A DNA stretch of 64,000 nt from Heliocidaris erythrogramma (Eukaryota > Echinodermata > Echinoidea > Camarodonta > Echinometridae), in contig CM046866.1 in the NCBI GenBank assembly GCA_025617745.1, positions 11,973,725 to 12,037,724 on the forward strand, read 5' to 3'. Positions 17,961 through 61,795 of this stretch are shown here, piece after piece. The position numbers and the translations under genes were made by a program. The stretch's first letter is position 1; every line of letters starts with the position of its first letter. The notes under the pieces were generated by a model. The model was not told the DNA's origin, made no database searches, and saw only the letters and a program-made list of their open reading frames with translations.

Positions 17961-18261
17961 CTAAAACATTCCAGTTAAATTGCAGAAATTTTCTGCAAGC
18001 TCTACATATCCAGCCCCTCTAAGAGCATTGCTCAGCATTATTGTCTGAGACTGCGTAGGGGTACGCCTTTTCCAGTCCAGGAGCATGTTCCTTGTCCCTT
18101 CGCTGACGACCTGGCCATCTCGTCCTGTATTGGATGCTTTGAATGTCTTCCACTTAATGTCGGTGAAGCCTAATCCTAATGCCAATTTATGCAGATCCTT
18201 GTGATTACCAAGCTCATCGGCAAGTTCCGCAATAGTCTCCTCTAAAATACCAACCATTTCG
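17961..18261 (-). CDS. SAMHD1-like: SAMHD1-like exon L: Death domain and stop
   Basis: 301 bp ending in TAG (17961-17963). The acceptor is GTTTTAACAG and the first base completes a Ser codon. The roughly 99 residues have the Death-domain pattern: LADELG, DLHKLALGLGF, NMLLDWKRR, LSNALRGAGYVELAENF, i.e. six amphipathic helices with the conserved Trp in the DWK motif. Death domains make homotypic contacts in apoptosis and innate-immune complexes. No transmembrane segment follows. A different gene ending is possible, but frame continuity with exon K favours one transcript. Confidence 0.85.
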
Positions 18262-24200: not shown

Positions 24201-27200
24201 TATTTGTGTCAAGATATTTGGTTCAGCTGTTCATAGCCGTGGCACTTTCTGTCGCTGAGCAGGGTTTGGCATGCACAAGTTGTTGCTTGGCCAGACAATA
24301 GTTTGCCAATAGACCGCTTCGGTAATGTATGCAAATTTTTTGCATACCTTTCAAACAAAGGTTGTTCTTGACAACCTGAAAGCTTGCCGGACATAGCTAC
24401 AAATAATGTATGCAAAGTGGATTCCAAGCATTGAGGCTCATTTATAAAAAGCAGGTTCATGGAATGGCTTGTCGCTAGGTGTTCAGAGAATTATGTGCAT
24501 AAAATTGTATATACACTAAAGGAAAAAAGAAACTTATAAAAGTTCAAGAGATCACCAAATTAAATTCCCTGCATGGAAATGTACCAAATTTGGATATAAT
24601 GTTGATTCAATGCATGGCTTTAAATGACAGTCAATAACAAAAAGTTTTCTTCAATGCCACAAAAGAAATGTGCACTGAAGCAAAGGACTCTCTAATCCCC
24701 AAGTCACAAAGACAAACTGCAGCCTTGTACACCATATGCATGTCAATGAATGAAACAAAAGAATTTCAAAAGGGATTTGCACCCCTCGAGCAAGAGGATA
24801 TTGATGTTCTGCCATGGTTCGCCCGTTCACCAGACCTTTCCCCAATTGAACATCTCTGGGAAGAGCTTGGTCGACGTGTGTCAAGGCGTGACAATCAACC
24901 CATCAATAGGGAGACGCTCATTGCAGCACTGCAAGAGGAATGGAACAATGTTCCCCAGGCTACCATCGCGAATCTGATCGGAAGCATGCGAAGACGGTGT
25001 ACAGCTTGCCAGCAAGCTAGAGGTGGACATACTGGCTATTAATCTGTTTGGATATGAACTTGCAAATCCCTTTTGAAATTCTTTTGTTTCATTCATTGAC
25101 ATGCATATGGTGTACAAGGCTGCAGTTTGTCTTTGTGACTTGGGGATTAGAGAGTCCTTTGCTTCAGTGCACATTTCTTTTGTGGCATTGAAGAAAACTT
25201 TTTGTTATTGACTGTCATTTAAAGCCATGCATTGAATCAACATTATATCCAAATTTGGTACATTTCCATGCAGAGAATTTAATTTGGTGATCTCTTGAAC
25301 TTTTATAAGTTTCTTTTTTCCTTTAGTGTATTACAGAAGCGGTCTATTCTTCAAAGAAATGACAAAGACCTACATACAACTGCTCCTAGATATCCCCTGT
25401 GCGAGACGCTTGGGGTACCAATATGGCTGCCATTTTGCAATGGTGGTTTTAGTTGTGCCATAGCTATTCATTATGCAACATCATATCCATTGCATACAGG
25501 TAAATGCACATGTTCGACTATAACATAAGTTTTTCAAATTGGCAGCCCCCATGGAACAATATCTAGCAAGGAATCTGCAAACTTTAGACATTGTTCTCAT
25601 TACTGATTAATCAAATAGGAGTATTTTCAAAATATTTTGAACAGGCTGACAATTTTCCAGACGATTATCAGCTAAAGTTTGTTGAGTTTCATTCTCCTTT
25701 AAATCTATACATCATCTGAATTATGATTTTTAGTTGGGGGCCCAGTCGTTCGGCATCTCCTTGCCATTATTTTTTTAGCTACCTTATTTCATTTTCGGAA
25801 TTATAACCCTATATCATATTCGGAATTACTAGCCTATATCATTTTCAGAATTATCGTTATTATGAACCATATATTATTTCGGAATTACGAACCTTCGGAT
25901 GAACGACATGTAGCCCGAGCACACATCACCCACACACAAAAATAAAACTTTAAGTCTTGATTCTGCCACTGCGTGCCAAGCGGACACTGGGCAACAATCA
26001 TCAGCTGCTTCTCGCTTCGCGCACGTCATTTTACATGAAATACTTATGTTCAGATACATTTCCTCGTCGGAAAGCTTTGCACAGCACTGTACTGCAGTAT
26101 TTAGGGCTGATTCAGATCGGTTCTGAAAAGTCCAAAGTTATCAATTAGTTACCTTGGTTGGGGACCTGTCATTACATGTTCATCGTCTTCTGAAAATGAT
26201 GCCGATGAGACCCGAGGATGTTGTGCTTGCCCCTGTCCTGAGTTGTCTTGCAAAAGAAAACAAAATCAGAAAGTGATTCACTCGTAACATAAAAAATTCC
26301 CGAAGGTTGATAATGTTCGTTTCAGGTTTGGATTTAACAGCAACTGGAAGTCGTTATGAACAATGCAAAAGTATCAACCCTTTTTCTTTCAATTTTATGT
26401 TTCCATATTACACTGCCGAATCAAAGTATATATTCTCATTTCGTTAAGCATGTTAAGAGAAACAGGACACGCCATAATATGTTTCAATAGCTTTCCCTTT
26501 ATATTCAATAATTACTTTGCTAAGATATAATTTTCCGTACTCTTTAGGTATGCCTTGATACTTCATATGACAGAATCTATATCGAACAGGCTATCATGGA
26601 ATCACAGGTATCGCACAATTTTGGTTTAAATTAATCATCTATAAACATAAAGAAGAAATACAAAATATGTATATATTCAAAATCTTGCAAAAAATGTATA
26701 TACCATGGGAGTACCCCCAATAATCCATTCCGGGCCCGTGTTATTGATTTCCCCATTAATGTGTTGTACAAGCTATCTGCTAATGAGTATACTACATCAT
26801 ATTCTTATACGGAGCAATTTGTGTTCTTATAAAATACAGCCTAAACAACTGACAAGAAATAAAATATTACAAAATTACAAGGAAAATTAACCATATTCAA
26901 GAAACAAATGTAAGAGAGATTTTTATATTTTTTCTTTATAGAGGTATGTGTGACGTTCAATCCACGATTGTTTTGTTCGCTTCGTGATGTTCAATAGAAA
27001 ATGTACTATTATCTACTGTGAATTCCATGCTTTACATTACATATTTAATGTATATACTGTTAATCCCCCTGTATGATATCTTTTCCTATTTGTGCACTGG
27101 AATGTGAGGCAGATCGGCCCTTTGCTAAACATTATTTACTGTAATAATAGTAATAATAATAATAATAACAATAATTATAATAATAATAAAACAATCAAGA

Positions 27201-47500: not shown

Positions 47501-50500
47501 TAAACTTAAGCGGGTGACTTAAGCGGGTGAGTGCTTGGTTTGAAAGGGGTATTTGAAAGATCCGCCACTACTGAATGATACACAAAACATAATGTGACCC
47601 GGTCTAGTTTGGCTTAAAGTAAGTTAATAATGATGACACCGTCGATCTTTAATTGGAATGAAAAGAAAGAAGCATCCACTTTTGGTATTTTATCAGATAT
47701 CATAATACCTCTTGAGTCCTTGGATAAAGACCCAACATACGTTAGTGAGCACGATATGGCCATTGCAAGAAAATAAATATACAATTTCGGACAGATTCGG
47801 TGGCGTACCTAGGGATAGTGGCGCCCGGGACAAACAATAAACTTGCGCACCCCCCCCCCCCCCCCCCCCCCCCCCCTCTCCACACCTAAGCTTATCAGGT
47901 CAAAAGTACATAACATATATTCTCCGCTTTAAATTAAGAAATTACAGGACTAAATTGGTACTGATTTCTTATGCACTAACTTTAGTAGCCAATGAAAGTT
48001 CGATGAAAACAAGAGGGAGCAAAGCGACCGAGCTGCATTTTCACCTCTCAAAAACGCAATTTCTTATGCATTTCGACCTTGGAACAAAGTCGCAAGAGAG
48101 CACAGCAACCGAGTGTTGGATTTTCTTCCAAATATTGTACACTGTAAAACGTTATTCTATTAACTTTTTCCTGTATTCGGAACGCAGATTTAACAAAACA
48201 CTGAAACACATTCGGGAAAGTATCAAGGTAAACAAAAGTTGGGATTTTTGTTAAACTTTAATAAATGCTACCTGACGCACTTCACTCTATATTGGGGCGC
48301 AGAATTAAAAAGACACTGATGAAACTTATATGCTCTCGAGCAAAGAAAAGGGAATTAGGTAATGTTGAATTTTGAACCCATGATTTGGAGGCGCTAAATT
48401 ACGAGATCCTGAAAAAACATATTCGAGGAGCAAAGCGATCGAGCTTTTGAAAAATTAGCATTTTGAACATCTTTTAAACAGTCATTCTAATGCAATTTAT
48501 ACTGGGTTGGGGTGCATAATCATTAATTACCATAATTTTTCTTTTACCCCCTTTATCTTTTTCTCTTTGGCGATTTTTGAGCCCCCTGAAGTGCTGAGCG
48601 GGGCGCGTACCCCCTCTGCCCCCTCCCTTAGATACGCCACTGAACAGATTATTATTTACTTACCCTTCTTTACCAATGAATATGAGATCGTTAGATGCAG
48701 CCAGAAAGGCGTCTTTCAACCTTGAAAAAGACAGTACACAATTTTTAGGAGAAGTGATATCCCATTGTTTTACATGTTTCATGAGGTTTTATGTAGATAT
48801 GCGGAAATGTCAACTTTATTCAAGCACGGCATGCATGAAACACTGCTTGACTCACACGGCCAAACCGACTCCAAACCGACCGATTCTTTGCCCTGTAATT
48901 TTTTGTTCGGTCTTTTGCCGGTCTAGTGTCGGTCTCGTAGGCCACCTTCCTCTTTTCATTCTCGCTGCCGGAGAATAACAACAATCAGATAAGTCACTGC
49001 GCCTACAATTGAGATTTATCTATGTTTCGCGCCTTTCTGATCTGCTTTGACAGTGTTTGATAAATTAATTCCGTTCTTTTTTTTAATTCTTATTATTTTG
49101 GTGGAACAGACTTTTCAGTCACTTTCCTTGCTAGACAGAAATTAAATCAAAATTCTGTCTCGCATTTCTTCCACTTTCGTTCCTCCCTGCGACATAGCTT
49201 TTACGCACGTTCGCTGGGCTAGCAATCACCTGCTTAGCTTTTAGTTTGTATTCGTTAGGGTTCTCCTTTTTTTTGTCGTGCGTAGCCCTCGGGGTGTTAT
49301 TTATTCTTCGTAGCTTCTTGCCTCGCATTTAGTTGTGCTTGTATTCATGGGCGCCAATCCTCACAGGAATTCTATTCAAGTGGGGGGGGGGGGACACCCC
49401 ATTGTTGCATCCAGGTGTGTCCCCCCCCCCCCCCCCCCCCCCCCACTTGAATAGAATTCCTGTGAGGATTGACGCCCATGCTTGTATTTGCTTTAGAAAT
49501 ACTGTGAGCTCAATATTTATTTACAACCTTACGTACTCCTTTTTCTTATTGTTTCAGGATCAGTATGAGTTCTTCTGCTCTTTGAATCATGTTACCCGTA
49601 CCGGCCCCACCGGTACGGGACGGTACGGCTTCATCTCCGATGAAACGCAGTACACTAGCTACCGGGGTACGGGCGTGAAACCGTCGACTCGGTCAAGGAT
49701 TATACTCCCAGGCTTGTCGACGAGAGGTAAGTTAGGGACCCCTGCGGACAGTGGGTCTCAGGCAGGGACAAGCACCTCGCTGTTTGCTAGCCCGGCAGCA
49801 GCCGGGCTCGGCATTTCAACAACAGTCGGGACTCGGATGGGTCGCCGGATTACCGACCACTGGCCCCCGAACTCAGGACGTGAGTGTCGCCGAATTACCG
49901 GCCACTGGCACTCATGTCCGCTCAGGGGGAGCCGTTGGAGTACCGACCACTGGCTCCCACCTGAGCAAAGACACTGGAGTTTCTCCATCCAGTGATATAT
50001 ACACTCTTAGTGACTCGGCGAGCCTTAGTGTCTCGGCCCTAGTCGCTACGGAGACGGCTACACCCTGTGAGAGAGCATCAGAGCGCCCTGCCAAGCACGG
50101 CCTTTCAGGTACGGCCAAGGTGCCGATTTCTTTACCGGAGGGCTCCCCCGCCCCTTGCAAGAAGTCCAAAGGGCACCATTCGGCCAAGTCTCTTTCTAAG
50201 TCGAAGTCCAAGGTTGCCTCGGGCACACCTAAGACGTTGACTGGGAAGAAGGGCATGGCTTCTGAACTTCTCCGCCTTTCGAAGATAGTTGTCGAGAAGA
50301 GCGGGTGGTTTACCCCCTACCTCGCAGCCGACGACGGGTGGCACAGACCCCTCCTCGGACACTGACCAGTCCGTGGACTTGTTTGATCCGAACCCTGACC
50401 CGGTTTTACCTGGTTCCGGTTCGACGGTATCTGGTATCGGGTTGTCGGTATCCGACCCCGATTTGCCTATATCCGTCCCCGGTTTGCCGATATCCGGTCC

Positions 50501-53500: not shown

Positions 53501-56189
53501 TGTTTCCAAAACATGTGCAAGAATTACAACTTACATGATAGTGATGATCTTGCAGACTCTGTGTTGATAAGCTGCATAGTGAAGACGACGGCGTGTAAGA
53601 AACATATGGTTCAGATCACTGGCTACCTGAAGTTCAGAATGGAAAATAATGTTACCAGTTACACACTTGCTACACGTGGGTCGAGTATTGGAAATGTAGA
53701 TTAATGTCTTGCCAAAGGACGTTAGTGCCGTAGAAGGGGTTGGAACCCCGTCCTTTGTGGTTCACAGTCCGGAGACTTATCTACTAGACCACACAACTTC
53801 TATATACCGTAGATCTGTGCAGAGCTTGACATTTTTTCTAGCATTGTGTTAATGTGTTGTCATCTTTTCATTACTTTTGCTATTTCAGCCTTTTTATTTT
53901 TTTTCTTCAATATTTATGTGTTTTATTGGATCATCACAATCATAAATTTACAGGCAATTGTTATAGTGATTGAAAAAATAAGAACATTTAATAAAAATAA
54001 AAAGCAAACAATCAAAAGGAAAAAGGGGGAAGAAGGGTAACACATCAGAACATATGCATAACCAAGCGGACAGAGCAGCCATGCAGGAGCCCCATCCAGC
54101 CCACGCACCTCCAATCAGGGACAGACTCAGTGTAAACAATATGTGTATTACGGAATCTCGTTATAGATACACCAACTTTAATGAGAAAACGGCAATATTT
54201 TTTATGTTCAATATGAATTAGTTCTTTTTTCTTTCTTGTGAGGTGTTTTATTAGTTGACTTGGTGCCCCAGAAAGTCCCATATTAAAATATGAAAACCTA
54301 AATTGTCAGTTTGAAAAAGACAGTGTCTTTTAGGAAAAGCACAAGTTCTTGGGCATAGAAATTTTCGGAGTTTATTGCGCAGGATTTTTTATTGAAAAAG
54401 ATTCAGTACTGTTAGATATTTTACAGGTCAAATTCTCGTTGACTTAGAACTTTCTGAGACACCCCTTTCTTCATGTACCTTGTCTCTGAAGCAAAGTTCC
54501 TCCCTGAGCCCACTCTCCCTCTCTATTTTATGCACTTTGACGAAAGGCATAATACGATTGAAGTCAAAGGCGGACTTCATGCCTAGGTAAAGAGTGTCTC
54601 GTGCGAAGTAGTCCCACTTGTCCACGTCTACTCCGTTGGCAGTGTTATTCACGATCTGTTGCAAATAAAACTTGTCTTCCTGATAGGAAAAGAGTAAAAA
54701 GGATATGTTAGACTCGGAACTCCTCGGAACAATATCAGTTAAGACAAAATGGGGTGAAGCGATTTTGCTTCGGCAACATGTATTCTGGGGCTTAATATTG
54801 ATCAAAAATAGAGCTTAGGATTCAATAGGGTTTTAGGTTAGGTTTAAGTATAGGTTAAAGTTAGTTATTTTGTGTCGTCCACAGTTGAAGTTAAGACTAG
54901 TGTAGGATATTGACAAAGGAGCCGTTGTTGCTAGTACAAAGTGACGTCAGATTCTTTGTTGCTTGCATGGCAATTACCCGGGGGCACTCAGTATATTGTG
55001 TGCGGAGGGTATGTGCCGCCCAGATGACCCCAATTTTTACACTCAAATTTCTAAAGTTGAGAAAAAGAAGAGAGAAACCCGTTCCAAAGCACCGCTTTTT
55101 TTCATTCCGTCGTTCTGGCCGTTCTGGCCCGCCCCGCCCGGGCCGTTTCGAAGACACTGTAGACTTGCCATGACACACAACGTAATAGCGAATGGGATTT
55201 TGTGTGTGGGAACCAAGGTCACGTTTCATCAAACGGTCATAGGTGCAGGTTCGTCGACATCCCATTGAAACGCGTGTATTAAAATTACCATGCGTTTCAA
55301 TGGGATGTCGGCGAACTTGTGCTTGTGACGGTTTGGTGAAACGACGCCCAGTTCCGTAGCATCATATTTATATTTCAATCCCGTTCCAAAGAGCCCCATT
55401 TAAAAAAAAAAAATTGTTCCGAAGACCATCCTTTTTCATGATACGCTCGTTCCGAAGCCCCTTTTGTTTTGTCCCCCCCCCCCCCCCAGGGGGGTGGCAA
55501 TTATCTGATATTCAGAATCGGTACTCTGTACGACCATGGACCTTGTATTTGCACGTCGTGCAGAGGAAACTTTGAACACAGCACATAAAATGTAATTTCG
55601 AGTGTGAGTGATGCAGGATTGGACATGCACACTTGGGGGACAATTGAACGCCTATATATTGTTATGCATATATATCACCCGCGAAGTGACATTTATTGAT
55701 CAAAAAAATTCGGTTACATTTATGCATTTGACTTTTTTTACATATTTTAGGCATGGAATTTGGTCAAACTCAGTAGAGTAATTAATAACTAAACTCTCTC
55801 ATTACCCTTTGTTATATTTCAGAATTGTTATCATGAAATAGTATATTTTTAATAACCTTTTTCATCGTTATTTATCGTTGAATATATGAACATGTAATAT
55901 TTCAAGCTATACAATATCATCTTCTCAGGCTATATAAAGACAGGGGAGGATGAGAAAAGGTAATATTGTTTAGAATGCTGGTCAATCATTAAATTGAAAT
56001 TTGGATTTGATTTTATAAATGCTGATGAATGTGCTTTCACCTATCACCTATACCAATGCTGTGTTTTTCTTGGGCGGGTATAATTTCTACAGGCGGCTGA
56101 CTTCTCTTACCCAATGAAGGTTTGTCAACTTTTGGAAAAGGTAGACCCGTATTCTTTTGGTCTCGCCAGACCTTCAAAATTCGCTCAGT

Positions 56190-56226
<37 letters not shown>

Positions 56227-57423
56227 GGGGTATGGGGGTCCAGTTTCCCTCCAGAATTCCCTGACAAGCAAAAAAAAAAAAAAATTGGGGCCGGGGGAGG
56301 GGCACGTGCCCCCTGTGCTCCCCCCCCCCCCCTTTGCATCCGCCACTGATAGCAGCTGACAAATCTATTTCATTTATGTCAAATCCTCACTTCAGAAGAG
56401 CGACAACTTTTTTATGGAATTCGCGTTGTGACATTTATAGTACAAAAGATAATAGCCGGTGAATGAAATATTTCTTTTTTTGTGATAATGTAACGTTTTG
56501 GTACATACATTTAACTTTTAATTACATCTTTTTTTAAGGTCGGTCACTCTTAAAGGTAAATTCCTTTCTGGCTGGTACCTGCCAAACAACTTTTTTTATA
56601 TTTTATTGTACCAATGTACTTATTCCATGTATGTATGTATGTTTTTATTGCTTGGTGAAATAAAATTGAAATGAATTTAATTTCTCGGGTGTTGCAGCCA
56701 TAGGCGCACAAAGTTTTCAAAATTTGGGCTGATCCCCTTGCCCCAATATCAAATTTTCCCTTCTAAAGTTTGCGAAGCGAGCAACCATAAATGTGGGTTA
56801 CTTATCTTTAGTGCTGACAGCCTTCCTTACGAAAATGATTTTTCAGAAACGCACATATAAGTTGATTTCGCTTTACCATAAATCTGCACTAGAATAACTT
56901 CTTATCAGATGCTTCCTTTTTCTCCCAAATAGTAATTACCAGTTTGGATTCCTCTCCTCTGGGACGACCCAGGATGATATCACCGATGAATTTAATATCC
57001 GACTTGCGAATGTTGTGATATTTCAGCTTTTGCCTTAGGTCGTTATGCTCGATCAGGTATTCGAACATGAAGACCGATTGCTCCTCGTGCTACAAAAAAT
57101 AATAAAATGATCAGGGAGACATACGAAACTTTAAAATATATCAATGTTACGTTCCAGGATATGCTTAAATGTTCACAAAGAAGAGGGGTTCCATTCGATA
57201 GGACAGAAAATCTGATTTTGACATTCTTGTATGAAATGAAAATGGTCAGTTAAAATAATTCTTTCATCCATCTCTGGGCCATCAAAAGAGATTCACAATC
57301 GTCACCATAAACCATGACCAGTTTATAGTCGTTTCAATCTTTCACTTTTTTGGAGGCATGCGTGCGCGCGCGCTGACCCGTACATGACCGGGGATAGAGA
57401 GCAGTCCAGGCAGGGGTATGCGC

Positions 57424-57454
<31 letters not shown>

Positions 57455-60400
57455 GGGGGGGTAAACGTGTGCAGATAGAAGGAATAAATAAATGTTAACC
57501 CCGTAGGCGAAGACCGGGTTCAGCTACAGCCAAGATCATCTTGAAAACAATCATTTACAATAACATTCATCTGGAATCATGGACGTAATTCTAAAATACT
57601 ATAGTAAATAGTGTATGTATAATGCGCGCTGTGATTAGTTAGATTCGCATGACTGACATGCACAAATTTTGTACTATATGAACTCCAAATACTAAATTTT
57701 CCCTTGTGCAGGTCTGCACTCGGGATAATTTAGTGTTTGTCGTGCTCATTATCCAGTATAGTACATGATAGATCATGCACTATTGATATGATATATTTGG
57801 CACATACATGGAACAGTATGACCATGTTTAACATTTCGTTCCGATTTCATTTACGCTAATACAATTTTACGTTACTTTCAATGTATAAGAGACGAATTGA
57901 AGTTTATTGCTGAGAAATCATACATGCAAAATGGCTAAAACAAAGTAAATCTGATAGAACAGGGTAGCCCTAACCACTTTCGCCTGCATGTGTGAACAAA
58001 TCGCCCTACAGGTAAAGCCTTAGTCACAACTGCCCGTACGGGCTTGTACGGGTGGTTTACGGGTGGTTTACGGGCAGAAATTTGGGAAAACGCAAGGGGG
58101 ACGCAGGTTGTTCGTACGGAATTTCGAGTTCGCAGACAGCACGCTAAAGCCGTAGGCCGAAAATGTGTATGCACATTATTTTCTGCGTTCTCGCTACGAC
58201 AGGCAGCCCGTGGACAGGACGTAATGAACACTCACAGTCTCCGCAAGAGGGTAGTGCGAATAGCGTGGGTGGGTCGCACGTTTGCTGGGGGTAAAAACCG
58301 CGCGAATACCGCAGGCAGCACTCACGAGGCACGCATGTGATGGTCACGCAAGTGCGCATGCGCTCCTTGCGGGCCACGTGCGCGGGTATCCAATCATAGC
58401 TGAAAAAATGCATGTGACTTGCGTGCTTCGTGTGTCCCACCCACGGCGCATGCAAACACGTGCGTGCAACGTACGGCCAATTTGGGGCCGGTACAACCAT
58501 AGACAAATTTCGCTCTGAATTTTCAGTGTCTTCAGGAGGTCCGACGTTTCTTCAAGGCATTTTCTAAATCAGGACTGACTCTTGAATCACAATGCCTGGA
58601 GCAAGAGGCAGGGGTCAGAAGAGAACACGTGGGGCTAAGAGGGTGGAAATCCACCGCCGACCGTACTGTCGCCGTACGGTTTTAGTACGTTTTCTTTGCT
58701 TTCACCCTACTACCGGCGTGAATGTGGCGCAACAGGCCCGTACGTCCTTGCAACACGTACGGTGTACGTGCGATTAACGGACGTGAACCTTGCGTCATCT
58801 GCACGGAGCACATACAAATCGCACGGCATTTGCACGTTACACTCACGATTAAATTTCCGACTGAGGCGTACTGACGCCTTGCGTGCCGCACGTTAACTGC
58901 AAGACATACGTGCTCCTTGCGTATGAAGCCCGCGCAACCACGCTACTACTTATACTCCCTGTGCGAACTGCCACGGACCTTTACGTTTTTTTCCAACCTC
59001 GAAAAAACGCAGAAACCGTGCGTCCTGAAAAAAACGTACGGGCAGTTGTGACTAAGGCTTAACAGAAACCGCGATCTGCCTCTGGGAACAGGGGTTCATA
59101 AGTAGTGAGCCCTATCCTACAAGTACCCCCTGGTTTAGTGAGATCGACAACAAATCATGAGTCAGTTATAACCGATCACATTAAATCAGGAGGATCCAGG
59201 GGGCACGGAGGTGTGGACCCCCCCCCCCCCCCCTCCCCCACCACCACCGCCGCCAACAAATTTTTCTTTTCTTTTTTCTTTTTTGCTTGTCATAGGATTT
59301 TCTGAATTGGATCCCTTTTTGCTTGATAACTAGGATCCGCCCCTGTTAAATTGACAATGAATATGTTTACACTTCAAAACTGATTGCTTTCTGATTGAAT
59401 CGCAAGTCAAATCAACTCACAGTCCATTTCTCCTTATTCTCTCCCGGTGGAACGATGTCTTCAAAGGCGTGAGAAAAGGGACCGTGTCCTAGGTCGTGGC
59501 ATAGGCCAGCGATTTGCACACATGTAATCTCGTTGTCCAGAATACGGAGTTTAGGATTATTCTGTTTGAGCAGAGTTGCCAGCTTACCCGCCAAATGGCT
59601 TACCCTGGATTAGAAATGGAAATCAACGCCGTGTTATGTAGCAGATATACATTGTAAGTTGACCCTTTTCAAACTTTACATGAAGATAAATCCGAGTTGT
59701 GTCGTCGTCATCGTCATCATCTTTCATGTGGTTTCAATCTATGTGTAAAAAGTCATTTTACTTTCTCACCCTTTTTCTAGTTTTGTACATGTATTGCATT
59801 TTCAAAATGTGTTTACATGTGGAAATAACTTAATAAATTATGATTTGATTCTAAATAATGGTATTCTTCTTGTAATTGTTTACCCAGTGCTTACGACAAA
59901 GTAATGATGGTTAAGCCAAAAGCCATTTCTTGATATGTTCGTTAAAAATGATTTAATTCTCAAATATCCTACAAGGCAGTCGGATAAGTTCTATCTACCC
60001 CTACTTAGATCATGTTTCGCTCAAGGCCCTAAATATTGGAATGCACTACCCAATGAACTGAAGAATGCCCCATCCCTTAACATTTTCAAGAAAAGATTAA
60101 AAGAGTTCTTGCTTACTTCATACAACACCTAACTATAGTGCATTATCCTCTTTATGTCTTCCATCCCATTCAATTCCGTTCTCACTCCATTTAAAGACCT
60201 CAGCCTGACCGAATTTTGAAATATACCCTTTATTCATCCACGGGGAGCTATATATTTTCTGAACAAATTGAAACCAACTTCATGAGATTTCGTTTCCTGT
60301 GGAATGAGTAACAGCGTCCCGAATGTTGATCCCCGGTGGTTTGGGCCCCGTCTCTGAGGAACGCTACTTTGCGGGGGGTGAAAATTTGATGAAATTTATG

Positions 60401-61795
60401 AATAACCAGGGTAATTATATTCTTTGTTTACTAAGCTTTACGTCAATATATGGTTGTTTTGGGTCAGGCTGAGGTCTTTAATCTTTTATTTGCCTCGCCT
60501 TAAACTCGTAGTATTTATTTGGTCATGGAATTTGTGCGCTATCTTCTATCTCCTTGGTCTCTCACTCCATTCAACATGCAGCTTGTCCCTTCTTGTGAAT
60601 GTCTGGTACTGTGTGTTGCTCTTTAATGTTCTATGTTGGCTTTTCTTGAGTATACTTCAATTGCAATTACCAATTATGTTATACTCTCTTGAGAACTCTT
60701 TCGTTCTTTTTTTTTTTTTTGTTTTTTCTCGCTTCATGAAAATTCTCAACAAAGATTGGTAATATTTTCCCTTGTTTTTTTATACATGCATTACAATAAT
60801 GTTCAATCTCGGGGGTCCACAGTTTACAAGCTTTGCTTTTCAAGTGGACTCCTCCATTTCCAATGTTTACTTTGTTCAATGAAAATGTACCTTCAATGCC
60901 TTATTCAATGTCATTGATTTTATAGTCACACAAGATTTTATTCTTTTGAATTGTACATGGATATTATAATTGTATTATTTACTGAATATTGATTTGTATT
61001 GTTGCTGGAAATGGAAATAAACTAAATTGAAACTGAAACTGAAGCCGTTATTATTTTAGGTCTTAGAAACAGTACTCTATTTGACTTTTTTCGTAGGAAG
61101 ACTTCATCCCTTTCTTTTTCGAAGTTTTGTACATGTATTGCATTTTCAAAATGTGTTTACATGTGGAAATAACTTAATAAATTATGATTTGATTCTAAAT
61201 AATGGTATTCTTCTTGTAATTGTTTACCCAGTGCTTACGACAAAGTATTGATGGTTAAGCCAAAAGCCGTTATTATTTTTAGGTCTTAGAAACTTTACTC
61301 TATTTGATTTTTTTCGTAGGATGACTTCCTCCCTTTCTTATTCGAAATGATCTACCGACGTCTCCCTCTCCACCTTCCCTGCTACAAGCCGACGTTGGAA
61401 GACGTCGCTAGTCGCGGTGAGCAAATTAAACAATTCTCAACCGTGAGTGTCTCGGATCGTTTGGAGGAAGAGACTGGGTTTTATTCTTCATAACAGGAAC
61501 TAATACAAAATGTGAAATGACAAGTGGTGATAATTCGGTGTATTGTATGTTTGCAAATAATAATACCGCCATCTACAGTATAGAGGGAAGGTCTATTTCT
61601 ATTTAATACAATGCTGAAAACTTTGAGTATATACCCTAGTGAGTGCTCAAATCTGGTATGAACTGCACTGGGAAAAACATAAGAGGTACCGCCTAGCTGC
61701 TTGATGAATCGAAGCCTTTGGAACTCTGGTGTATCGATGATCAGCTGACAGGATGGAGGCATCTGAATACTGCCGTGGATGGGGTCATTGAAAAC
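17961..61795 (-). CDS. SAMHD1-like: SAMHD1-like dNTP triphosphohydrolase with C-terminal Death domain (12 exons seen, 5' end missing)
   Basis: The protein is expected to hydrolyse dNTPs to deoxynucleosides and triphosphate, as SAMHD1 does. Seen: twelve exons (listed separately) with GT-AG borders and matching phases join to 624 codons plus TAG. Counting from the first codon at 61795, the HD core has metal ligands H51, H90, D91 and D185 (human H167, H206, D207, D311), the catalytic histidine H116 (human H233), and Y189 and D193 (human Y315, D319). D21, Q26 and R29 match the human allosteric GTP contacts D137, Q142 and R145. Residues of about 500-525 are an acidic/Ser linker and 525-624 a Death domain. 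Human SAMHD1 has no Death domain and carries a SAM domain at its N-terminus; the N-terminal exons were not found here. About 15 residues matching human 'NMDYG' and its surroundings were also not found. Introns range from 126 bp to about 10.4 kb and are full of transposons. Confidence 0.85.
18316..18660. repeat. CAAATGTAAAAA repeat cluster
   Basis: About ten copies of (A)CAAATGTAAAAA or close variants at irregular spacing, with ACATGTCA between some. It lies in the intron just upstream of the Death-domain exon. Followed by the doublet ATAGCGAAAGACCCG. Confidence 0.8.
18871..20666. mobile_element. Composite inverted-repeat element (AGCCTGTCCC family)
   Basis: Both outer ends carry TAGGCCA(T/G)GAGCCTGTCCC, inverted, followed by AAATAG and CTTAGACCATC. 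A third copy of this end lies inside at about 19590. Internal modules with CCGTCGGGATGGGGTGTCAG recur in both orientations (about 19100, 19210, 19840, 19970, 20390). It looks like an element inserted in, or partly duplicated with, a related one. No transposase. Confidence 0.65.
20667..21825. other. Region without a supported gene
   Basis: Holds a C16 run (21186-21201) and otherwise unique-looking intronic DNA of the SAMHD1-Death gene. Confidence 0.4.
21826..21962 (+). repeat. ATTCCGAAGGTTCATAATTC repeat array, left
   Basis: Five to six degenerate units of TTCATAATTCCGAAAATGAAA. The array at 25790-25897 has the same units inverted. Confidence 0.75.
21963..23183. other. Intron sequence without a recognised feature
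   Basis: Between the left ATTCCGAA array and the hAT MITE; contains a C13 run at about 22080. No exon recognised. Confidence 0.4.
23184..23555. mobile_element. hAT MITE with perfect 8-bp target duplication
   Basis: 372 bp starting CAGTGTTGGGT and ending ACCCAACACTG, the classical hAT terminal sequence. CCTGATAC flanks both sides (23176-23183, 23556-23563) without mismatch. The interior is built of GATCAAGATC and GATCTCGAG repeats, with a third CCCAACACTG end at about 23336, pointing to a partial internal duplication. Confidence 0.92.
23564..24513. other. Intron sequence, no gene seen
   Basis: Has a C12 run (about 23794) and a lysine-codon-like A/G-rich patch (about 23870-23935). The segment ATAGACCGCTTCGGTAAT at about 24310 is partly inverted next to the Tc1 element's right end. 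Confidence 0.4.
24514..25328 (+). mobile_element. Snapback Tc1-like element with transposase fragment
   Basis: 815 bp flanked by TA. The left arm (24514-24780) and right arm (25062-25328) are nearly perfect inverted repeats of about 267 bp, starting CACTAAAGGAAAAAAGAAAC. The 280-bp centre encodes the end of a Tc1-type DDE transposase on the plus strand: WFARSPDLSPIEHLWEELGR, then a C-terminal region ending in GGHTGY. The N-terminal DNA-binding and first catalytic Asp regions are absent. The long arms replaced them, so the copy cannot encode an active enzyme. Confidence 0.92.
25329..25789. other. Intron sequence, no feature seen
   Basis: Short unique-looking stretch between the Tc1 element and the right ATTCCGAA array. 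Confidence 0.4.
25790..25897 (-). repeat. ATTCCGAA repeat array, right (inverted to the left array)
   Basis: Units of TTTCGGAATTATAACCC and TTCGGAATTACGAACCTTCGG, the reverse complement of the array at 21826-21962. Confidence 0.75.
26153..26246 (-). CDS. SAMHD1-like: SAMHD1-like exon K (linker between enzyme and Death domain)
   Basis: 94 bp. The first two bases complete the codon left by exon J; it encodes an acidic, Ser/Gln-rich linker (SASFSEDDEH) and leaves two bases before GTAACT. Acceptor CTTTTGCAAG. It has no family match. It matters for the frame: joining exon J straight to the Death exon reaches a stop after six codons, whereas inclusion of this exon keeps it open. Confidence 0.65.
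26247..27144. other. Intron sequence, no feature seen
   Basis: AT-rich stretch upstream (in gene sense) of linker exon K; no repeat end or exon recognised. Confidence 0.4.
27145..29990 (+). mobile_element. R2-like LINE, degraded
   Basis: Plus-strand fragments in several frames. RT begins with LAPWKAACPDGVQAFWIKRF, then NYRPITYFPVLWKVLTGIL and SRGTKDQLYIDK, then SLSPLLFVMAM, then LLYMDDLKLFGKSE (catalytic YMDD) and SEDIGMKFGLDKCAL. A C-terminal zinc knuckle CRMCHSKDETVTHLVSEFSK has its last Cys replaced by Phe. Frameshifts and stops separate all blocks. An AAT microsatellite (about 27145-27188) sits at the 5' side. The architecture (RT followed by a CCHC) fits elements with a restriction-like endonuclease. 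Inactive. Confidence 0.85.
30059..30101. repeat. Poly(C) then CT microsatellite
   Basis: C13 followed by a run of CT dinucleotides; a G20 run occurs at about 30184. Confidence 0.85.
30222..31290. mobile_element. Multi-arm foldback element
   Basis: Outer inverted ends (GACTTGCGCCACCGACAAGA near 30248; complement near 31245) enclose a left arm (about 30312-30515), an inverted right arm (about 30826-31028) and a third related segment (about 31029-31213). All carry ATGGCGTT and GTCGCTACTCTCT motifs. A SINE tail lies in the central loop. No coding region. Confidence 0.7.
30655..30730 (-). mobile_element. 3' fragment of the 7SL-like SINE
   Basis: GACGTGTATCAATCAGA and TAATTGGGTTTTTACAG next to a GT microsatellite, as in the longer copy at 43655-43849. 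Only the tail is present. Confidence 0.65.
31789..31900 (-). repeat. 3' LTR remnant of the gypsy element
   Basis: Matches the 3' part of the 5' LTR with a 3-bp indel; ends in AACA next to the target duplication. Confidence 0.88.
31981..34731 (-). CDS. Gag-Pol polyprotein of the gypsy element (protease, RT, RNase H)
   Basis: From the ATG at 34731 the frame runs 916 codons. Order: Gag-like region, two CCHC zinc knuckles (CYRCGSSVHLANDKEC, CQNCNKTGHFAKVC), an aspartic protease (FDTGSAVSLLP), reverse transcriptase (LDLTSAYHQ, YLDDVVIYG), RNase H (ETDASSYGFGAVLLQ) and a terminal LSRLPV. The stop arises at a run of six T (32001-32006, A on plus). The other frame continues with a short integrase start (LQRATAEDATLRNAMSYV) that then reads into the LTR. 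A one-base slip or a ribosomal frameshift at this run would link them. Confidence 0.9.
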   Translation of the reverse strand: MAGLQPPPFFLPTHGSPALPWKQWKSMFQNYLLASGANKFVDDRKRAMLLHCLGAEGQRIYDTLPATDAVASGASGGDGAACTFAQALDRLDKHFTPAVNVVAERYRFRQRGQSVNESVEEDVSALRALSVTCNFGELRDEFIRDQLVEKTSSDRVRERLLIEPNLTLLSALTIASQMEAASREARELEQHVQQSAPVNAVSSKGKKKWKRAGKKAVLVNKQKTDSNKSCYRCGSSVHLANDKECRATTAVCQNCNKTGHFAKVCQSKAVRQISESDVDGQSSDDMCADSHTVTSPPSAQSPVNNTVQILNISSDNIMCCVVLNGTVNVDMIFDTGSAVSLLPAEVFHRYFVPELLEPVRGTSFVTYLKQQIPLCGKFRTQVRFGDTTAPVEIFVVERGEPILGRDLIHALRLQLKDNVVYCITSATAEKQMTKEAEAMKAAHPSLFQDHIGTAKGFVHRVRTKPDVQPVQQRLRRLPFAVRDKVSQELKRLENEDIIERIDSSEWISPLVVAYKRTGGVRLCVDLREVNKAIVIDKYPLPHIQELLAELRDSAIFSTLDLTSAYHQLLLHEDSRDLTAFITHDGLFRFKRVCFGLASAPSAFQKLMSSCLAGLPGVQCYLDDVVIYGKTCEEHDVNLSAVLKKLQDIGLTLNLQKCQFRVTSIRFLGHQISADGLHPDPSRVKDILETTAPTDLATLRSFLGLASYYARFVHDYATVIEPLRALTRKEVPFDWTPVVQEAFDKVKSEIAKATALHFYDPSLPTVVETDASSYGFGAVLLQVKGDTEWPVAFASRTLSSAEHNYSVGEKEALACVWACEKWFTYLWGRHFILRTDHQSLCTLLSSRGTGRQSMRIARWSARLMRFNFSVEYRRGSVNYAADALSRLPVRAQEPIPDSDDEIVIQCINSIFCRYCDL
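34748..34922 (-). repeat. 5' LTR of the gypsy element
   Basis: Starts TGTTGTGTTGTGG in element sense right after the duplication; 175 bp, contains AATAAAG as a possible polyadenylation signal. Confidence 0.85.
35275..35795 (+). mobile_element. CR1/L2-type LINE 3' fragment
   Basis: Encodes the RT C-terminus: LQRVQNTCARLISG, LRNLHWLPVRQRITFKILL, APKLWNNLPLEVR. The 3' end is TGCGCTTTATAAATG followed by an ATT microsatellite, typical of this LINE group. Strongly 5'-truncated. Confidence 0.88.
35796..36180. other. Intron sequence, no feature seen
   Basis: AT-rich; no exon or repeat end recognised. Confidence 0.4.
36181..36440. repeat. GGCCCACGAGACCGAC palindromic module cluster, copy 1
   Basis: Units such as GATGGCCCACGAGACCGACA appear direct and inverted (CTCGTGGGCTATCGGTCT, TCTTGGGCCGTCGGTGTA). 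Related clusters lie at 41550-41715 and 48840-48950. Confidence 0.65.
36649..36871 (-). CDS. SAMHD1-like: SAMHD1-like exon J (end of the enzyme region)
   Basis: 223 bp, phase 0 in, one extra base out (TCA G before GTATAA). It starts LPVDQPRNLQDSTVCIYTK, aligning with human LLPEKFAEQLIRVYCKK, then diverges into a Lys/Glu and Ser-rich stretch. The acceptor AAAAAG has a weak pyrimidine tract, so the start is slightly uncertain. Confidence 0.75.
37030..37386 (+). mobile_element. LINE 3' tail
   Basis: Non-coding stretch ending GGAAATAAAATTGAATTGAA with ATTGA repeats, like the tails at 56690 and 61020. Confidence 0.55.
37705..38330 (-). mobile_element. Probable LINE 3' region, reverse orientation
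   Basis: Begins with TTTCATTTCATTTCATTTA, the reverse of a LINE tail (GGAAATAAATGAAATGAAA), and continues into AT-rich sequence without a readable RT. Confidence 0.45.
38434..38583. repeat. Two TA microsatellites
   Basis: TA runs at about 38434-38468 and 38549-38583; the spacer has the doublet TTTCGGGCAAGGA. Confidence 0.85.
38584..39969. other. Intron sequence with C tracts and a partial CAGTGGC element
   Basis: C runs at about 38952-38973, 39457-39470 and 39607-39620. CAGTGGCATATCTGAACC at 39628 resembles the ends of the hAT-like family, but a matching partner end was not found. Confidence 0.4.
40056..40079. repeat. Interstitial telomere-like CCCTAA run
   Basis: AACCCTAACCCTAACCCTAA, three perfect units within a mobile element. 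Confidence 0.85.
40911..41178 (+). mobile_element. tRNA-derived SINE
   Basis: The head has pol III box A (TGGTCTAGTGG) and box B (GGTTCGAATCC) spaced as in a tRNA. The body carries TGGCAAGACATTCATCTAC and GGGTACCCGGTAGGAAG, and ends AGCCGCGCTATACAAATTGAC. The arms of a true tRNA cloverleaf do not pair fully and a 190-bp body follows, so this is a SINE, not a tRNA gene. Related fragment at 53702-53799. Confidence 0.85.
41550..41715. repeat. GGCCCACGAGACCGAC module cluster, copy 2
   Basis: ACGGCCCACGAGACTAACAG, GTCAGTCTCTTGGCCTATC and AGTCCCGTAGGCTTTCGGCC form inverted pairs, close to the unit at 36181-36440. Confidence 0.6.
41922..42023 (-). CDS. SAMHD1-like: SAMHD1-like exon I
   Basis: 102 bp, 34 codons, phase 0 to 0, acceptor TGTCTAG, donor GTAAGT. 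It starts VSYFYYG, aligning with human HVSFYCK, and ends ISPDK. About 15 residues of the human protein between exon H and this one are unaccounted for. Confidence 0.82.
42097..43257. mobile_element. Non-autonomous DNA transposon with TIR AGTCACACTTTC
   Basis: 1,161 bp with about 40-bp imperfect inverted ends (AGTCACACTTTC, then GTAA.GCCTA, then CACC/CTCC). Many GCCACGTA-like words occur inside. No clear target duplication or transposase. A younger 211-bp element is nested in it. Confidence 0.7.
42808..43018. mobile_element. TA-flanked MITE (CACTCTTAGAAAT)
   Basis: 211 bp from CACTCTTAGAAATGTTGGG to its complement CCCAATATTTCTAAGAGTG, with TA on both sides (42806-42807, 43019-43020). Internal TTGGGTAAA repeats. 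Tc1/mariner-type duplication. Confidence 0.85.
43480..43576. mobile_element. Partial ACTGTAAAACTACAG MITE
   Basis: CTGTAGTTTTACAGTTATT and TTTTACAGGAAAGAGACTG recur at 44095-44192. Ends with internal pairing; incomplete copies of one family. Confidence 0.5.
43655..43849 (-). mobile_element. 7SL/Alu-like SINE
   Basis: Read on the minus strand, the head CTGGGCGTTGTGGCGTGCG continues CCTGTAATCCAGCTAC, then GACCCAGGTTCGAGACTG. This parallels the 5' (Alu) domain of 7SL RNA (GGGCGCGGTGGCGCGTG, CCTGTAGTCCCAGCTAC), and GGTTCGAGAC fits pol III box B. A non-7SL body (about 80 bp) and a CA microsatellite tail follow. Recognition is by eye, without a covariance search. Confidence 0.65.
44095..44192. mobile_element. 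Partial ACTGTAAAACTACAG MITE, second copy
   Basis: Shares TTTTACAGGAAAAGTCTGTAA and CTGTAGTTTTACAGTTATT with 43480-43576. Confidence 0.5.
44202..44528 (-). mobile_element. TTAA-flanked MITE, copy 2 (inverted)
   Basis: 327 bp, same length as copy 1 at 631-957 and its reverse complement, flanked by TTAA (44198-44201, 44529-44532). Confidence 0.9.
44533..44809. mobile_element. Second TTAA element abutting the first
   Basis: 277 bp between TTAA 44529-44532 (shared with the neighbouring MITE) and TTAA 44810-44813. Ends TAGGATACGCCAAC and GGTTGAGTATCCCT are imperfectly inverted. Confidence 0.5.
45001..45117 (-). CDS. SAMHD1-like: SAMHD1-like exon H (divergent)
   Basis: 117 bp, 39 codons, phase 0 in and out, acceptor CTTGTAG. 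Two acceptors are possible; only the upstream one (LHSLDEAQIK) keeps the frame, the one 16 bp downstream leads to a stop. It ends CENIEVQ before the weak donor GTGATT. Homology to human is low here, so the boundaries are less sure than for neighbouring exons. Confidence 0.7.
45244..45436 (-). CDS. SAMHD1-like: SAMHD1-like exon G
   Basis: 193 bp; the first base completes the split Gly codon and the exon ends phase 0 at GCG before GTAATT. It reads DDTILNKIMGS, then VEAREILTRIHKRQLYQRIGE, matching human [21 protein letters not shown]. Followed by a very short intron of 126 bp. Confidence 0.9.
45992..47549. mobile_element. Inverted-repeat element CCCTTTCAAAC with nested copy
   Basis: Outer ends CCCTTTCAAACTAGTTTACC and its partner GCTTGGTTTGAAAGGG flank ACCCGCTTAAGT motifs in inverted orientation. 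A further partial end occurs at about 46510. The 46605-47426 element sits inside. No coding region. Confidence 0.55.
46605..47426. mobile_element. Nested inverted-repeat element TTGGAAGGTGT
   Basis: Ends TTGGAAGGTGTAATATATTC and the inverse of GTTGAAAGGTGTTAT. Inside, the words GTATCGTCT and CATGGGGGCTGCCATTTT occur in inverted pairs (46700, 47290). Confidence 0.55.
47798..48642. mobile_element. hAT-like element, family CAGTGGCGTA, copy 2
   Basis: 845 bp with ends CGGTGGCGTACCTAGGG and CTTAGATACGCCACTG. Flanking 8-mers GACAGATT and AACAGATT match at 7 of 8. A C28 run lies near its left end. It shares AGCAAAGCGATCGAGCTT and AAATTACGAGATCCTGAAA with the copy at 4655-6085. Its right duplication ends 13 bp from exon F of SAMHD1-Death. 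Confidence 0.82.
48664..48720 (-). CDS. SAMHD1-like: SAMHD1-like exon F (57-bp small exon)
   Basis: 57 bp. The first base completes an ATG split across the intron; the exon reads LKDAFLAASNDLIFIGKEG, matching human ITDAFLKADDYIEITG, and ends with two bases before GTAAGT. The 8-bp target duplication of a hAT-like element (47798-48642) ends about 14 bp from the exon, just inside the intron. Confidence 0.88.
48840..48950. repeat. GGCC..GACCGAC module, degenerate copy 3
   Basis: ACGGCCAAACCGACTCCAAA and GTCGGTCTCGTAGGCCACC, related to the clusters at 36.2 and 41.6 kb. Confidence 0.5.
49346..49480. mobile_element. 135-bp snapback hairpin MITE
   Basis: Arms CATGGGCGCCAATCCTCAC through TTCTATTCAAGTG pair almost perfectly with the right arm ending GATTGACGCCCATG. 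A G13 run faces a C25 run and GACACC faces GGTGTGTC, leaving a loop of about 14 bases. The 8-bp direct repeat CTTGTATT flanks both sides (49338-49345, 49481-49488). Confidence 0.85.
49560..52640 (+). mobile_element. DIRS-like tyrosine-recombinase retrotransposon, deleted inside
   Basis: Gag-like serine/proline-rich region (49560-50500) and a pre-RT region (FFAKEYASDPKIQLDF). Then the frame jumps from the start of RT (AEIQLLREKG) directly to the RNase H end (TLAAYINRQGGTRS, PGQENLIADFLSRG), so the RT catalytic core is missing. The next block matches the DIRS post-RNase-H region (DPEAWAFDALVLHWG). A tyrosine recombinase N-terminal half follows (STIRAYRSAIAAMH, MSVKTIFLIAIASGQRRSSL); the catalytic R-H-R-Y C-terminal half is absent after 52640. 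GC-rich unlike its surroundings. Several frameshifts. Confidence 0.85.
52645..52882. mobile_element. 60-bp-arm foldback MITE at the broken end of DIRS
   Basis: Left arm GCAGAAAAATCATA through GATGTATCTACCTAT and its inverted copy ATAGGTAGATACATC through ATTTTTCTGATTTGC. Could instead be an inverted repeat belonging to the DIRS end. Confidence 0.65.
52986..53111. repeat. Small inverted repeat TATGCGCTGGA
   Basis: CTATGCGCTGGAG and TCCAGCGCCTATG near the two ends. Short; low weight. Confidence 0.35.
53535..53626 (-). CDS. SAMHD1-like: SAMHD1-like exon E
   Basis: 92 bp, phase 0 in, two extra bases out (AT before GTAAGT). It encodes MFLTRRRLHYAAYQHRV, aligning with human MFHTRNSLHRRAYQHKV. The acceptor ACTTCAG is followed by VASDLNH. 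Too short and too well spliced to be a retrocopy. Confidence 0.9.
53702..53799 (-). mobile_element. tRNA-derived SINE fragment
   Basis: On the minus strand: box A TGGTCTAGTAGA, box B GGTTCCAACCCC, then CGTCCTTTGGCAAGACATTA, matching the SINE at 40911. Confidence 0.8.
54479..54679 (-). CDS. SAMHD1-like: SAMHD1-like exon D (third metal ligand)
   Basis: 201 bp, 67 codons, phase 0 to 0. It contains NGVDVDKWDYFARD; the Asp before KW is the fourth metal ligand, and the Tyr and final Asp match the substrate-pocket residues of human SAMHD1. It ends FRDK before GTACAT, as human SAMHD1 does at ARDK. The acceptor is CTATCAG. Confidence 0.93.
54975..55500. repeat. CCGTTCCAAAG repeat with central hairpin
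   Basis: Words such as CCCGTTCCAAAGCACC recur at 55078, 55380, 55410 and 55448. The centre (55213-55351) is an inverted repeat with arms of about 60 bp (GTCGACATCCCATTGAAACG facing CGTTTCAATGGGATGTCGG). A C15 run closes the block. Confidence 0.6.
56089..56348 (+). mobile_element. G-tract hAT-like MITE, copy 2
   Basis: 260 bp from CAGGCGGCTGACTTC to ATCCGCCACTG. It has a G run of about 37 (56189-56225, one A further on) and shares CTCAGTGGGGG, GGTCCAGTTTCCCTCC and CTGACAAGCA with the copy at 12959. Confidence 0.7.
56940..57089 (-). CDS. SAMHD1-like: SAMHD1-like exon C
   Basis: 150 bp, 50 codons, phase 0 to 0, acceptor TGTAG, donor GTAATT. It begins HEEQS, matching human HEQGS whose His233 is the proposed general acid, followed by FMFEYLI and DIKFIGDIILG. 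It is shorter than the human segment, lacking part of the loop before the next helix. Confidence 0.9.
57360..57465. repeat. GC, GT and GA dinucleotide runs
   Basis: GCGCGCGC, then GTGTGTGTGTG, AGAGAGAGAG and a G8 run. Confidence 0.8.
58016..59059. mobile_element. Harbinger-like non-autonomous element (TAA duplication), CpG-rich
   Basis: 1,044 bp with ends AGCCTTAGTCACAACTGCCC and its inverted partner GGGCAGTTGTGACTAAGGCT, flanked by TAA (58013-58015, 59060-59062). A 3-bp TWA duplication is typical of PIF/Harbinger. The interior is unusually rich in CGTACGG and GCACGT words. No transposase. Confidence 0.82.
59180..59345 (-). mobile_element. G-tract hAT-like MITE, partial inverted copy
   Basis: Reverse strand reads CAGGGGCGGATCCTAGTT, then GATCCAATTCAGAAAATCC and TGACAAGCAAAAAAG, with a G15 run. 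Related to the copies at 12959 and 56089, lying between exon C and exon B. Confidence 0.55.
59421..59604 (-). CDS. SAMHD1-like: SAMHD1-like exon B (HD motif)
   Basis: 184 bp; the first base completes the Gly codon from exon A and the exon ends on a full codon before GTGAGT. It carries CHDLGHGPFSH, the HD metal-binding motif, and ends EKWT, with the catalytic His as first residue of the next exon. Best-conserved exon of the gene. Confidence 0.93.
59781..59924. repeat. Tandem duplication unit A1
   Basis: 144 bp repeated at 61125-61268 with only two or three changes. Confidence 0.9.
59925..61041 (+). mobile_element. 5'-truncated LINE inserted between duplicated units
   Basis: Encodes the end of ORF2 (KYPTRQSDKFYLPLLRSC, GPKYWNALPNELKNAPSL), a long 3' region, and ends AAATAAACTAAATTGAAACTG. 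AAGCC flanks both sides (59920-59924, 61042-61046). Same family as the LINE at 6316-9245, whose C-terminus reads YPTRQSDEFHLP. Confidence 0.85.
61047..61346. repeat. Tandem duplication units B1, A2, B2
   Basis: B1 (61047-61123), A2 (61125-61268) and B2 (61269-61346) repeat A-B as a unit of about 222 bp; A1 is separated from B1 by the LINE. Confidence 0.85.
61635..61795 (-). CDS. SAMHD1-like: SAMHD1-like exon A (start of HD region)
   Basis: 161 bp, phase 0 in, ending with two bases of a Gly codon before the donor GTATAT. It opens with VFNDPIHG and contains DTPEFQRLR (allosteric GTP contacts in human SAMHD1), IKQLGG and RFEHSLG, whose His is a metal ligand. The acceptor is a good pyrimidine tract ending TGCAG. 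An ATG overlaps the acceptor (61799-61801), so an open frame could start there, but family homology says more protein precedes it. No upstream exon was recognised up to 64000. Confidence 0.9.

What the first reader, a model, noticed from the sequence alone, without database searches (positions are those of the whole stretch)
17961..61795. SAMHD1-type dNTPase fused to a Death domain
Twelve exons in one frame link a complete-looking HD triphosphohydrolase to a C-terminal Death domain. Known SAMHD1 proteins are SAM-HD; a Death-fold partner would tie nucleotide depletion (antiviral state) to apoptotic or NF-kB-type signalling complexes. Metal ligands, catalytic His and allosteric GTP residues are all kept, so the enzyme should be active rather than a decayed scaffold. 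I know of no description of this architecture.
Basis: partly seen in the sequence, partly recalled or inferred. Interest (0 to 1): 0.88.

Follow-up and report, generated by a model that had tools for sequence, protein, structure and literature searches.

The report
Sea-urchin SAMHD1 ending in Death domain
In a sea urchin, a gene for a SAMHD1-like enzyme that destroys DNA building blocks seems to run on into a cell-death signalling domain, which would tie nucleotide control to a death or immune alarm; the exon pattern supports the join but no RNA has shown it.

Summary
Ten minus-strand exons (61795-36649) encode a SAMHD1-type HD core without a SAM domain; exon K (26246-26153) and a last exon (18261-17961) continue the frame: 1875 nt, 624 codons plus stop. 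The last exon is a Death domain, borderline by Pfam (22.7 bits, cut-off 22.6) and backed by a six-helix model and same-genome relatives. In the same genome K plus Death is a cassette that also ends ankyrin/ZU5-type and multi-Death genes. Two more SAMHD1 paralogs on the chromosome (B, D) are followed, same strand and order, by a private exon M, UPA-like (and in D ZU5) exons, K and Death. SAMHD1 exon 10 ends in a phase-1 donor in all four paralogs compared (A-D). The conventional tail exon that follows it in paralog C was not found near A or D. Likeliest reading: the window gene swapped its SAMHD1 tail for a linker plus Death domain; B and D may be SAMHD1-ZU5-UPA-Death. Not shown: any transcript, the initiator exon, or such a fusion in the protein database (length-limited searches). 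A co-duplicated neighbour gene, or an orphaned K-Death pair, is not excluded.

The parts
61635..61795 (-). SAMHD1 exon E1 (VFNDPIHG..FEHSLG): allosteric D137/Q142/R145 and metal-ligand H167 equivalents
59421..59604 (-). SAMHD1 exon E2 (CHDLGHGPFSH, HD motif)
56940..57089 (-). SAMHD1 exon E3 (starts HEEQS, catalytic His233 equivalent)
54479..54679 (-). SAMHD1 exon E4 (NGVDVDKWDYFARD, D311 equivalent)
53535..53626 (-). SAMHD1 exon E5 (second allosteric site region; R372 to A)
48664..48720 (-). SAMHD1 exon E6
45244..45436 (-). SAMHD1 exon E7
45001..45117 (-). SAMHD1 exon E8
41922..42023 (-). SAMHD1 exon E9
36649..36871 (-). SAMHD1 exon E10, 223 nt, ends at a phase-1 donor as in paralogs B, C and D; splice sites weak by my matrix; if not spliced the frame stops at 36608
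26153..26246 (-). Exon K, Ser-rich linker, phase 1 to 2; homolog of the linker exon before the Death exons at loci B and D
17961..18261 (-). Terminal exon: Death domain and stop codon; acceptor TTCTGTTTTAACAG, entry phase 2

Best explanation
The window holds one gene of an echinoid SAM-less SAMHD1 subfamily whose C-terminal tail exon has been replaced by a linker exon (K) and a Death-domain exon of the ankyrin/PIDD/UNC5 type, giving HD core - Ser-rich linker - Death. Likely working: the HD core is an active dNTPase (active-site residues kept) that assembles with nucleotide; its assembly brings several Death domains together and seeds a Death-domain platform for an adaptor or caspase. Shown: exons, phases, residues, Death match, paralogous arrangement. 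Inferred: splicing of E10 to K in RNA, enzymatic activity, oligomer-driven Death signalling. A possible route is capture of a neighbouring ZU5-UPA-K-Death unit of the kind still seen at loci B and D.
For: 1) Twelve exons with compatible phases, 624 codons open to one stop. 2) K is the top-scoring internal exon in the interval and the only one at that threshold in the required phase. It is homologous to K exons 0.4 kb (D) and 1.6 kb (B) before the Death exons of two paralogous loci, same phases (A-D nucleotide score reached in 0 of 1000 letter shuffles, peptide score in 2.9% of 2000; B-D 85.7% over 91 nt). 3) E10 ends in a phase-1 donor in A, B, C and D (223, 205, 247, 223 nt). In C the conventional tail exon lies about 0.7 kb on. 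Of three tail queries two recover C, and none finds a convincing tail in A (minus strand, 36.9 kb) or D (22 kb). 4) Same order and strand at three loci: A; B (E10 C14:11902764, M 11891690, UPA-like 11870403, K ~11838.8k, Death 11836807, all minus); D (E10 10448047, M 10451309, ZU5 10460307, UPA-like 10461324, K 10469448, Death 10469954, all plus). 5) M has phase 1 to 0 in D and B, fitting E10 (out 1) to ZU5 (in 0 by its best, weak acceptor); its only two genome matches are these (B weak there, E 2.3, firm by alignment). 6) Death-A has no stop, keeps 15 of 16 columns invariant in nine relatives (the relatives themselves keep 15 of 15-20 when left out in turn) and shows more third-position than other changes (dS mostly saturated).
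Against: No RNA evidence. No protein with this Death region at E<=0.1 among 284 candidates of about 327-1037 aa, none for K+Death at E<=10 among 11 candidates of about 72-229 aa; none of the 120 homologs listed (of 7856) carries Pfam Death. The A E10 splice sites are weak by my matrix (acceptor -2.8, donor 1.2). Introns of 10.4 and 7.9 kb are full of repeats. A lacks detectable M, ZU5 and UPA. Death-A does not group firmly with B and D: 14% of bootstraps and AU p 0.17; 0% when a long-branched row is included. For Death-B the best-scoring acceptor has another phase; the fitting one is second (3.9 against 4.9). M could be the first coding exon of a separate ZU5-UPA-Death gene (conserved Met in both copies). 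In D the exon chain from the UPA-like exons to K is not resolved. The entry phase of the tail exon in C was not resolved (best acceptor -1.0). Paralog C and those on C2, C6 and C17 have no close Death paralog nearby in the scored list (150 of 299 candidates).
Confidence: 0.6

Rival explanations
1. Two genes: a SAMHD1 gene ending at or soon after E10, and downstream a separate Death gene (at B and D an M-ZU5-UPA-K-Death gene). The pair was duplicated together along chromosome C14, which gives the shared order without fusion.
For: B and D are sister copies (Death 98/95; flanking intron of M alignable), so shared order is expected from block duplication. M has a conserved Met near its start. K+Death end non-SAMHD1 genes elsewhere. 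E10 can read to a stop at 36608.
Against: In A no upstream exon of such a gene (M, ZU5, UPA, ankyrin, further Death) was found, yet K and Death are intact and look constrained. The usual SAMHD1 tail exon was not found in A and D. E10-K and E10-M phases match.
Confidence: 0.23
2. Orphan relic: in A the ZU5-UPA part of a neighbour gene was deleted and K plus Death remain as unspliced debris beside SAMHD1.
For: A lacks detectable ZU5, UPA and M while keeping K and Death; the interval is heavily invaded by repeats; phases could match by chance.
Against: About 130 codons without a stop or frameshift and with splice sites kept; 15 of 16 invariant Death columns kept. My estimate, not a call: neutral drift beyond roughly 0.1-0.2 changes per site would usually have left a stop or frameshift.
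Confidence: 0.13
3. Assembly artefact: the exons were brought together by misassembly.
For: Repeat-rich introns.
Against: Contig of 46 Mb; D and B show a similar order.
Confidence: 0.04

Closest known systems
SAMHD1 (human, PDB e.g. 7ujn, 4q7h)
   Same: HD dNTPase core over residues 117-555, E=3e-93 (4q7h) and 6e-93 (7ujn); catalytic and pocket residues H167, H206/D207, H215, H233, D309/D311, K312, Y315, R319, R366, Y374 kept (roles recalled)
   Different: no SAM domain; second allosteric site altered (N358D, R372A, K377R); conventional tail replaced, by inference, with linker plus Death
Conventional echinoid SAMHD1 (S. purpuratus XP_781310.4 = P0001; Diadema antillarum P0003; paralog C in this genome)
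   Same: SAM-less HD core, 60-63% identical; phase-1 donor of E10 in C
   Different: they end in a Ser/Pro-rich tail closing with PEA- or LEA-xVT.., not in a Death domain
Ankyrin-ZU5-UPA-Death genes and multi-Death genes of the same genome (C8:0.79M, C10:31-44M; C10:54M, C11:13.7M)
   Same: close Death exon (45-54% identity); of 11 close paralogs read, the acceptor giving the same entry phase is best in 9 and second in 2; a candidate linker exon of phase 1 to 2 precedes the Death exon in three of the six such loci scanned
   Different: upstream parts are ankyrin/ZU5/UPA or other Death exons (labels mine except ZU5); no SAMHD1 exon matched within 20 kb
PIDD1 / UNC5 / ankyrin family (ZU5-UPA-Death)
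   Different: their N-terminal part is LRR, receptor or ankyrin repeats (recalled), not an HD dNTPase; the window copy has no detectable ZU5 or UPA

Membership tests
SAMHD1 dNTPase family | HD motif and metal ligands | tested here: met
   H167, H206, D207 and D311 equivalents in the alignment; Pfam HD 50 bits, cut-off 22
SAMHD1 dNTPase family | catalytic and substrate-pocket residues | tested here: met
   H215, H233, Q149, R164, K312, Y315, R319, R366, Y374 equivalents (roles recalled)
SAMHD1 dNTPase family | allosteric site 1 (GTP): K116, D137, Q142, R145 | tested here: inconclusive
   D137, Q142, R145 kept; K116 would lie in the initiator exon, not found
SAMHD1 dNTPase family | allosteric site 2 residues as in human | tested here: not met
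   R333, R352, K354, H376 kept; N358D, R372A, K377R. P0001 and P0003 also lack R372
SAMHD1 dNTPase family | N-terminal SAM domain (absent in many members listed) | tested here: not met
   no convincing SAM match upstream in the window or L021; echinoid relatives P0001 and P0003 start at the HD core
SAMHD1 dNTPase family | dNTP triphosphohydrolase activity and nucleotide-driven tetramer | not testable with these tools
   needs protein
Death domain | profile match | tested here: met
   PF00531 22.7 bits, cut-off 22.6, for the exon; 21.8, just under, for the longer ORF
Death domain | six-helix Death fold | tested here: inconclusive
Death domain | homotypic binding to a partner | not testable with these tools
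   needs protein
ZU5-UPA-Death (PIDD/UNC5/ankyrin type) | ZU5 and UPA before the Death domain, window copy | tested here: not met
   no convincing ZU5/UPA match in the window; in the genome-wide UPA search (142 matches, 150 of 195 candidates scored) the C14 copies are only at B and D
ZU5-UPA-Death (PIDD/UNC5/ankyrin type) | ZU5 and UPA before the Death domain, paralog D | tested here: inconclusive
   ZU5 19.4 bits, below its cut-off 21; UPA assigned only by similarity to same-genome ankyrin/ZU5 genes, no Pfam hit

The most novel reading that the evidence does not exclude
Sea urchins have evolved a family of SAMHD1 enzymes that carry the signalling half of PIDD/UNC5/ankyrin-type proteins (ZU5-UPA-linker-Death at loci B and D, linker-Death in the window). 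A nucleotide-sensing, self-assembling dNTPase would itself be the receptor that nucleates a Death-domain complex, so that dNTP depletion and a caspase or NF-kB response are one machine.
Probability: 0.4. Interest if true: 0.86.

Novelty: new variant of a known kind. Interest (0 to 1): 0.62.

Why it matters
SAMHD1 is an antiviral dNTPase and a cell-cycle dNTP regulator (recalled); links from it to death or NF-kB signalling are usually thought of as indirect. A SAMHD1 with its own Death domain would be a direct physical link, and its nucleotide-driven assembly gives an obvious trigger. It would also show exon-level domain swapping: the same phase-1 donor would feed the ordinary tail in one paralog and signalling cassettes in three others. 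One cDNA experiment decides it.

Tried and rejected
Close homolog of the fusion in public proteins: three searches. One search (395-aa query, lengths about 217-691) listed 120 of 7856 SAMHD1-like hits, none with Pfam Death; (Death region) 0 of 284 candidates at E<=0.1; (K+Death) 0 of 11 at E<=10. A SAMHD1-ZU5-UPA-Death of about 900 aa would have been too long for and was only tested through the window's Death words, so absence is weak.

Death exon starting its own single-exon gene: the ATG just inside the exon suggested it, but of the 11 close paralogs read only one (C11) has a Met in the stretch between acceptor and Death core. This weakens the idea and does not exclude it for A.

Further Death, ankyrin, ZU5, UPA or M exons in the window: searched and not convincingly found. 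Conventional tail exon in A and D: not found; a genome-wide search with the P0001 tail found one place, in paralog C; the same search with the C tail did not complete. My regex for the tail motif would have missed the C form (ELEA), so I rely, where the P0003 tail did not recover C either. One origin for the three SAMHD1-linked Death exons: neither supported nor rejected without the long row, 0% of bootstraps with it. Initiator exon: no convincing candidate. Literature, listings only except where said: SAMHD1 + death domain + sea urchin 0 papers; SAMHD1 + ZU5 0; SAMHD1 + echinoderm 9; SAMHD1 + invertebrate + domain architecture 1; sea urchin + ZU5 + death domain 3; two wider searches. By title and start of abstract none describes this architecture; of PMC7794386 I saw abstract and passages.

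Full report
WHAT IS THERE. The window is a sea-urchin stretch: the best relatives of the HD exons are Strongylocentrotus and Diadema SAMHD1 proteins. The search tool places it at G000:C14:11973725-12037724 of a 1.06 Gb genome. On the minus strand ten exons give a SAMHD1 core with compatible phases (table in 'parts'). It matches human SAMHD1 residues 117-555 at E=6e-93 (7ujn). Active-site residues are kept; of the allosteric residues the first-site set is kept as far as seen (K116 is in a missing exon), and the second site is changed at three positions (roles recalled). No SAM domain was found, as in echinoid relatives P0001 and P0003.

THE GENOME GIVES A FAMILY. A protein search of the same genome returned 150 scored Death-like matches (of 299 candidates); besides the window exon itself, 13 form a close group at 45-54% identity (E<1e-18). 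I read upstream flanks of up to 20 kb for 8 of these 13. Three (C8, C10:44.46, C10:31.74) follow ankyrin-repeat, ZU5-like and UPA-like exons (labels by reading, ZU5 confirmed by Pfam only for C10:44.46 at 21.1 bits, cut-off 21). Three (C10:54.77, C11:13.73, C10:54.40) have further Death-like exons upstream (partly by reading). None of the 8 flanks has a convincing SAMHD1 match within 20 kb. A candidate linker exon of phase 1 to 2 precedes the Death exon at C11:13.73, C10:54.77 and C10:44.46, though it is the top-scoring candidate only at the last. So K+Death looks like a C-terminal cassette.

TWO MORE SAMHD1 LOCI WITH THE CASSETTE. A genome search with the SAMHD1 core returned 70 matches of 76 candidates. 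On C14 four close paralogs appear: A is the window; B lies at 11.922-11.903 M (-), C at 11.800-11.781 M (-), D at 10.427-10.448 M (+). Two others of the 13 close Death exons lie downstream of B and of D on the same strand: Death-B about 66 kb after E10-B, Death-D 21.7 kb after E10-D. K-B and K-D were found 1.6 and 0.4 kb before them, each 79 nt, phase 1 to 2. K-A and K-D align better than any of 1000 letter shuffles at nucleotide level; the peptides are weaker (2.9% of 2000). B and D also hold a UPA-like exon (74% identical to each other), D a ZU5 exon (the ZU5 place of B was not read), and both an exon M with no other genome match at E<=10. M has phase 1 to 0 in both, as needed between E10 (out 1) and ZU5 (in 0 by a weak acceptor). 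The chain from the UPA-like exons to K in D is not resolved. In the window no M, ZU5 or UPA was detected.

WHY FUSION IS THE BEST READING. In A, B, C and D the exon E10 ends in a phase-1 donor after a Ser codon (205-247 nt). In C, 0.7 kb later, lies a tail exon that resembles the end of S. purpuratus P0001 (57% identity over 52 residues), although its own acceptor was not resolved. The genome-wide search with the P0001 tail found only this place. Of three tail queries two find it in C and none finds a convincing match in A or D; the 64 kb between E10-B and K-B were mostly not read. If A's gene stopped at E10 it would have lost its tail and still keep the donor. K and Death in A are open, correctly phased and look constrained, although no other gene that could use them was found there.

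WHAT SPEAKS AGAINST. No transcript. B and D are sister copies, so their shared order is closer to one observation than two. A's Death exon does not group firmly with theirs. M may be a first coding exon (conserved Met), which would make M-ZU5-UPA-K-Death a separate gene at B and D. For Death-B the fitting acceptor is only second-best. The splice sites of E10-A are weak. No fused protein was found in the protein database, with the length limits told above.

MECHANISM (inferred). SAMHD1 assembles in response to GTP and dNTPs (established for human SAMHD1, recalled). A Death domain on each subunit would be clustered by this. [quoted passage not shown] The window form would lack that module and depend on the HD core for clustering. 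Output is most likely a Death-domain adaptor; which one is unknown.

VERDICT.

Noticed in passing
G000:C14:10426899-10470229 (L050-L052) and C14:11922505-11836807 (L044, L045, L053-L055): Sister SAMHD1 loci D and B with exon M, UPA-like (D also ZU5) exons, K and Death downstream on the same strand: possible SAMHD1-ZU5-UPA-Death genes.
   Followed up: partly
G000:C11:13714885-13726200; C10:54.40 M and 54.77 M (L035-L041): Loci with two or three successive Death-like exons (partly by reading) and, in two, a K-like linker: candidate multi-Death adaptors.
   Followed up: partly
G000, many places, e.g. on C2, C9, C11, C12, C21: Large family of UPA-like exons (142 matches listed, 150 of 195 candidates scored), suggesting a big ankyrin/ZU5-UPA-Death expansion in this urchin.
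   Followed up: no
G000:C6:50.3-52.4 M and C17:0.12-0.28 M: Clusters of further SAMHD1-like exons, without a close Death paralog nearby in the scored list.
   Followed up: no
protein P0009 (Diadema setosum): Annotated protein with an immunoglobulin V-set domain before a SAMHD1 HD core: another odd SAMHD1 architecture in urchins, or a mis-joined gene model.
   Followed up: no
window 31981-34770 (-): Long gag-pol-like retrotransposon ORF inside the E10-K intron (label by reading).
   Followed up: no
window 24638-25204: The same transposase-like peptide reads on both strands, i.e. a near-palindromic element (label by reading).
   Followed up: no
window 7224-9176 (-), 14966-16295 (-), 28055-29072 (+): Reverse-transcriptase or endonuclease-like ORFs of LINE type (label by reading).
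   Followed up: no
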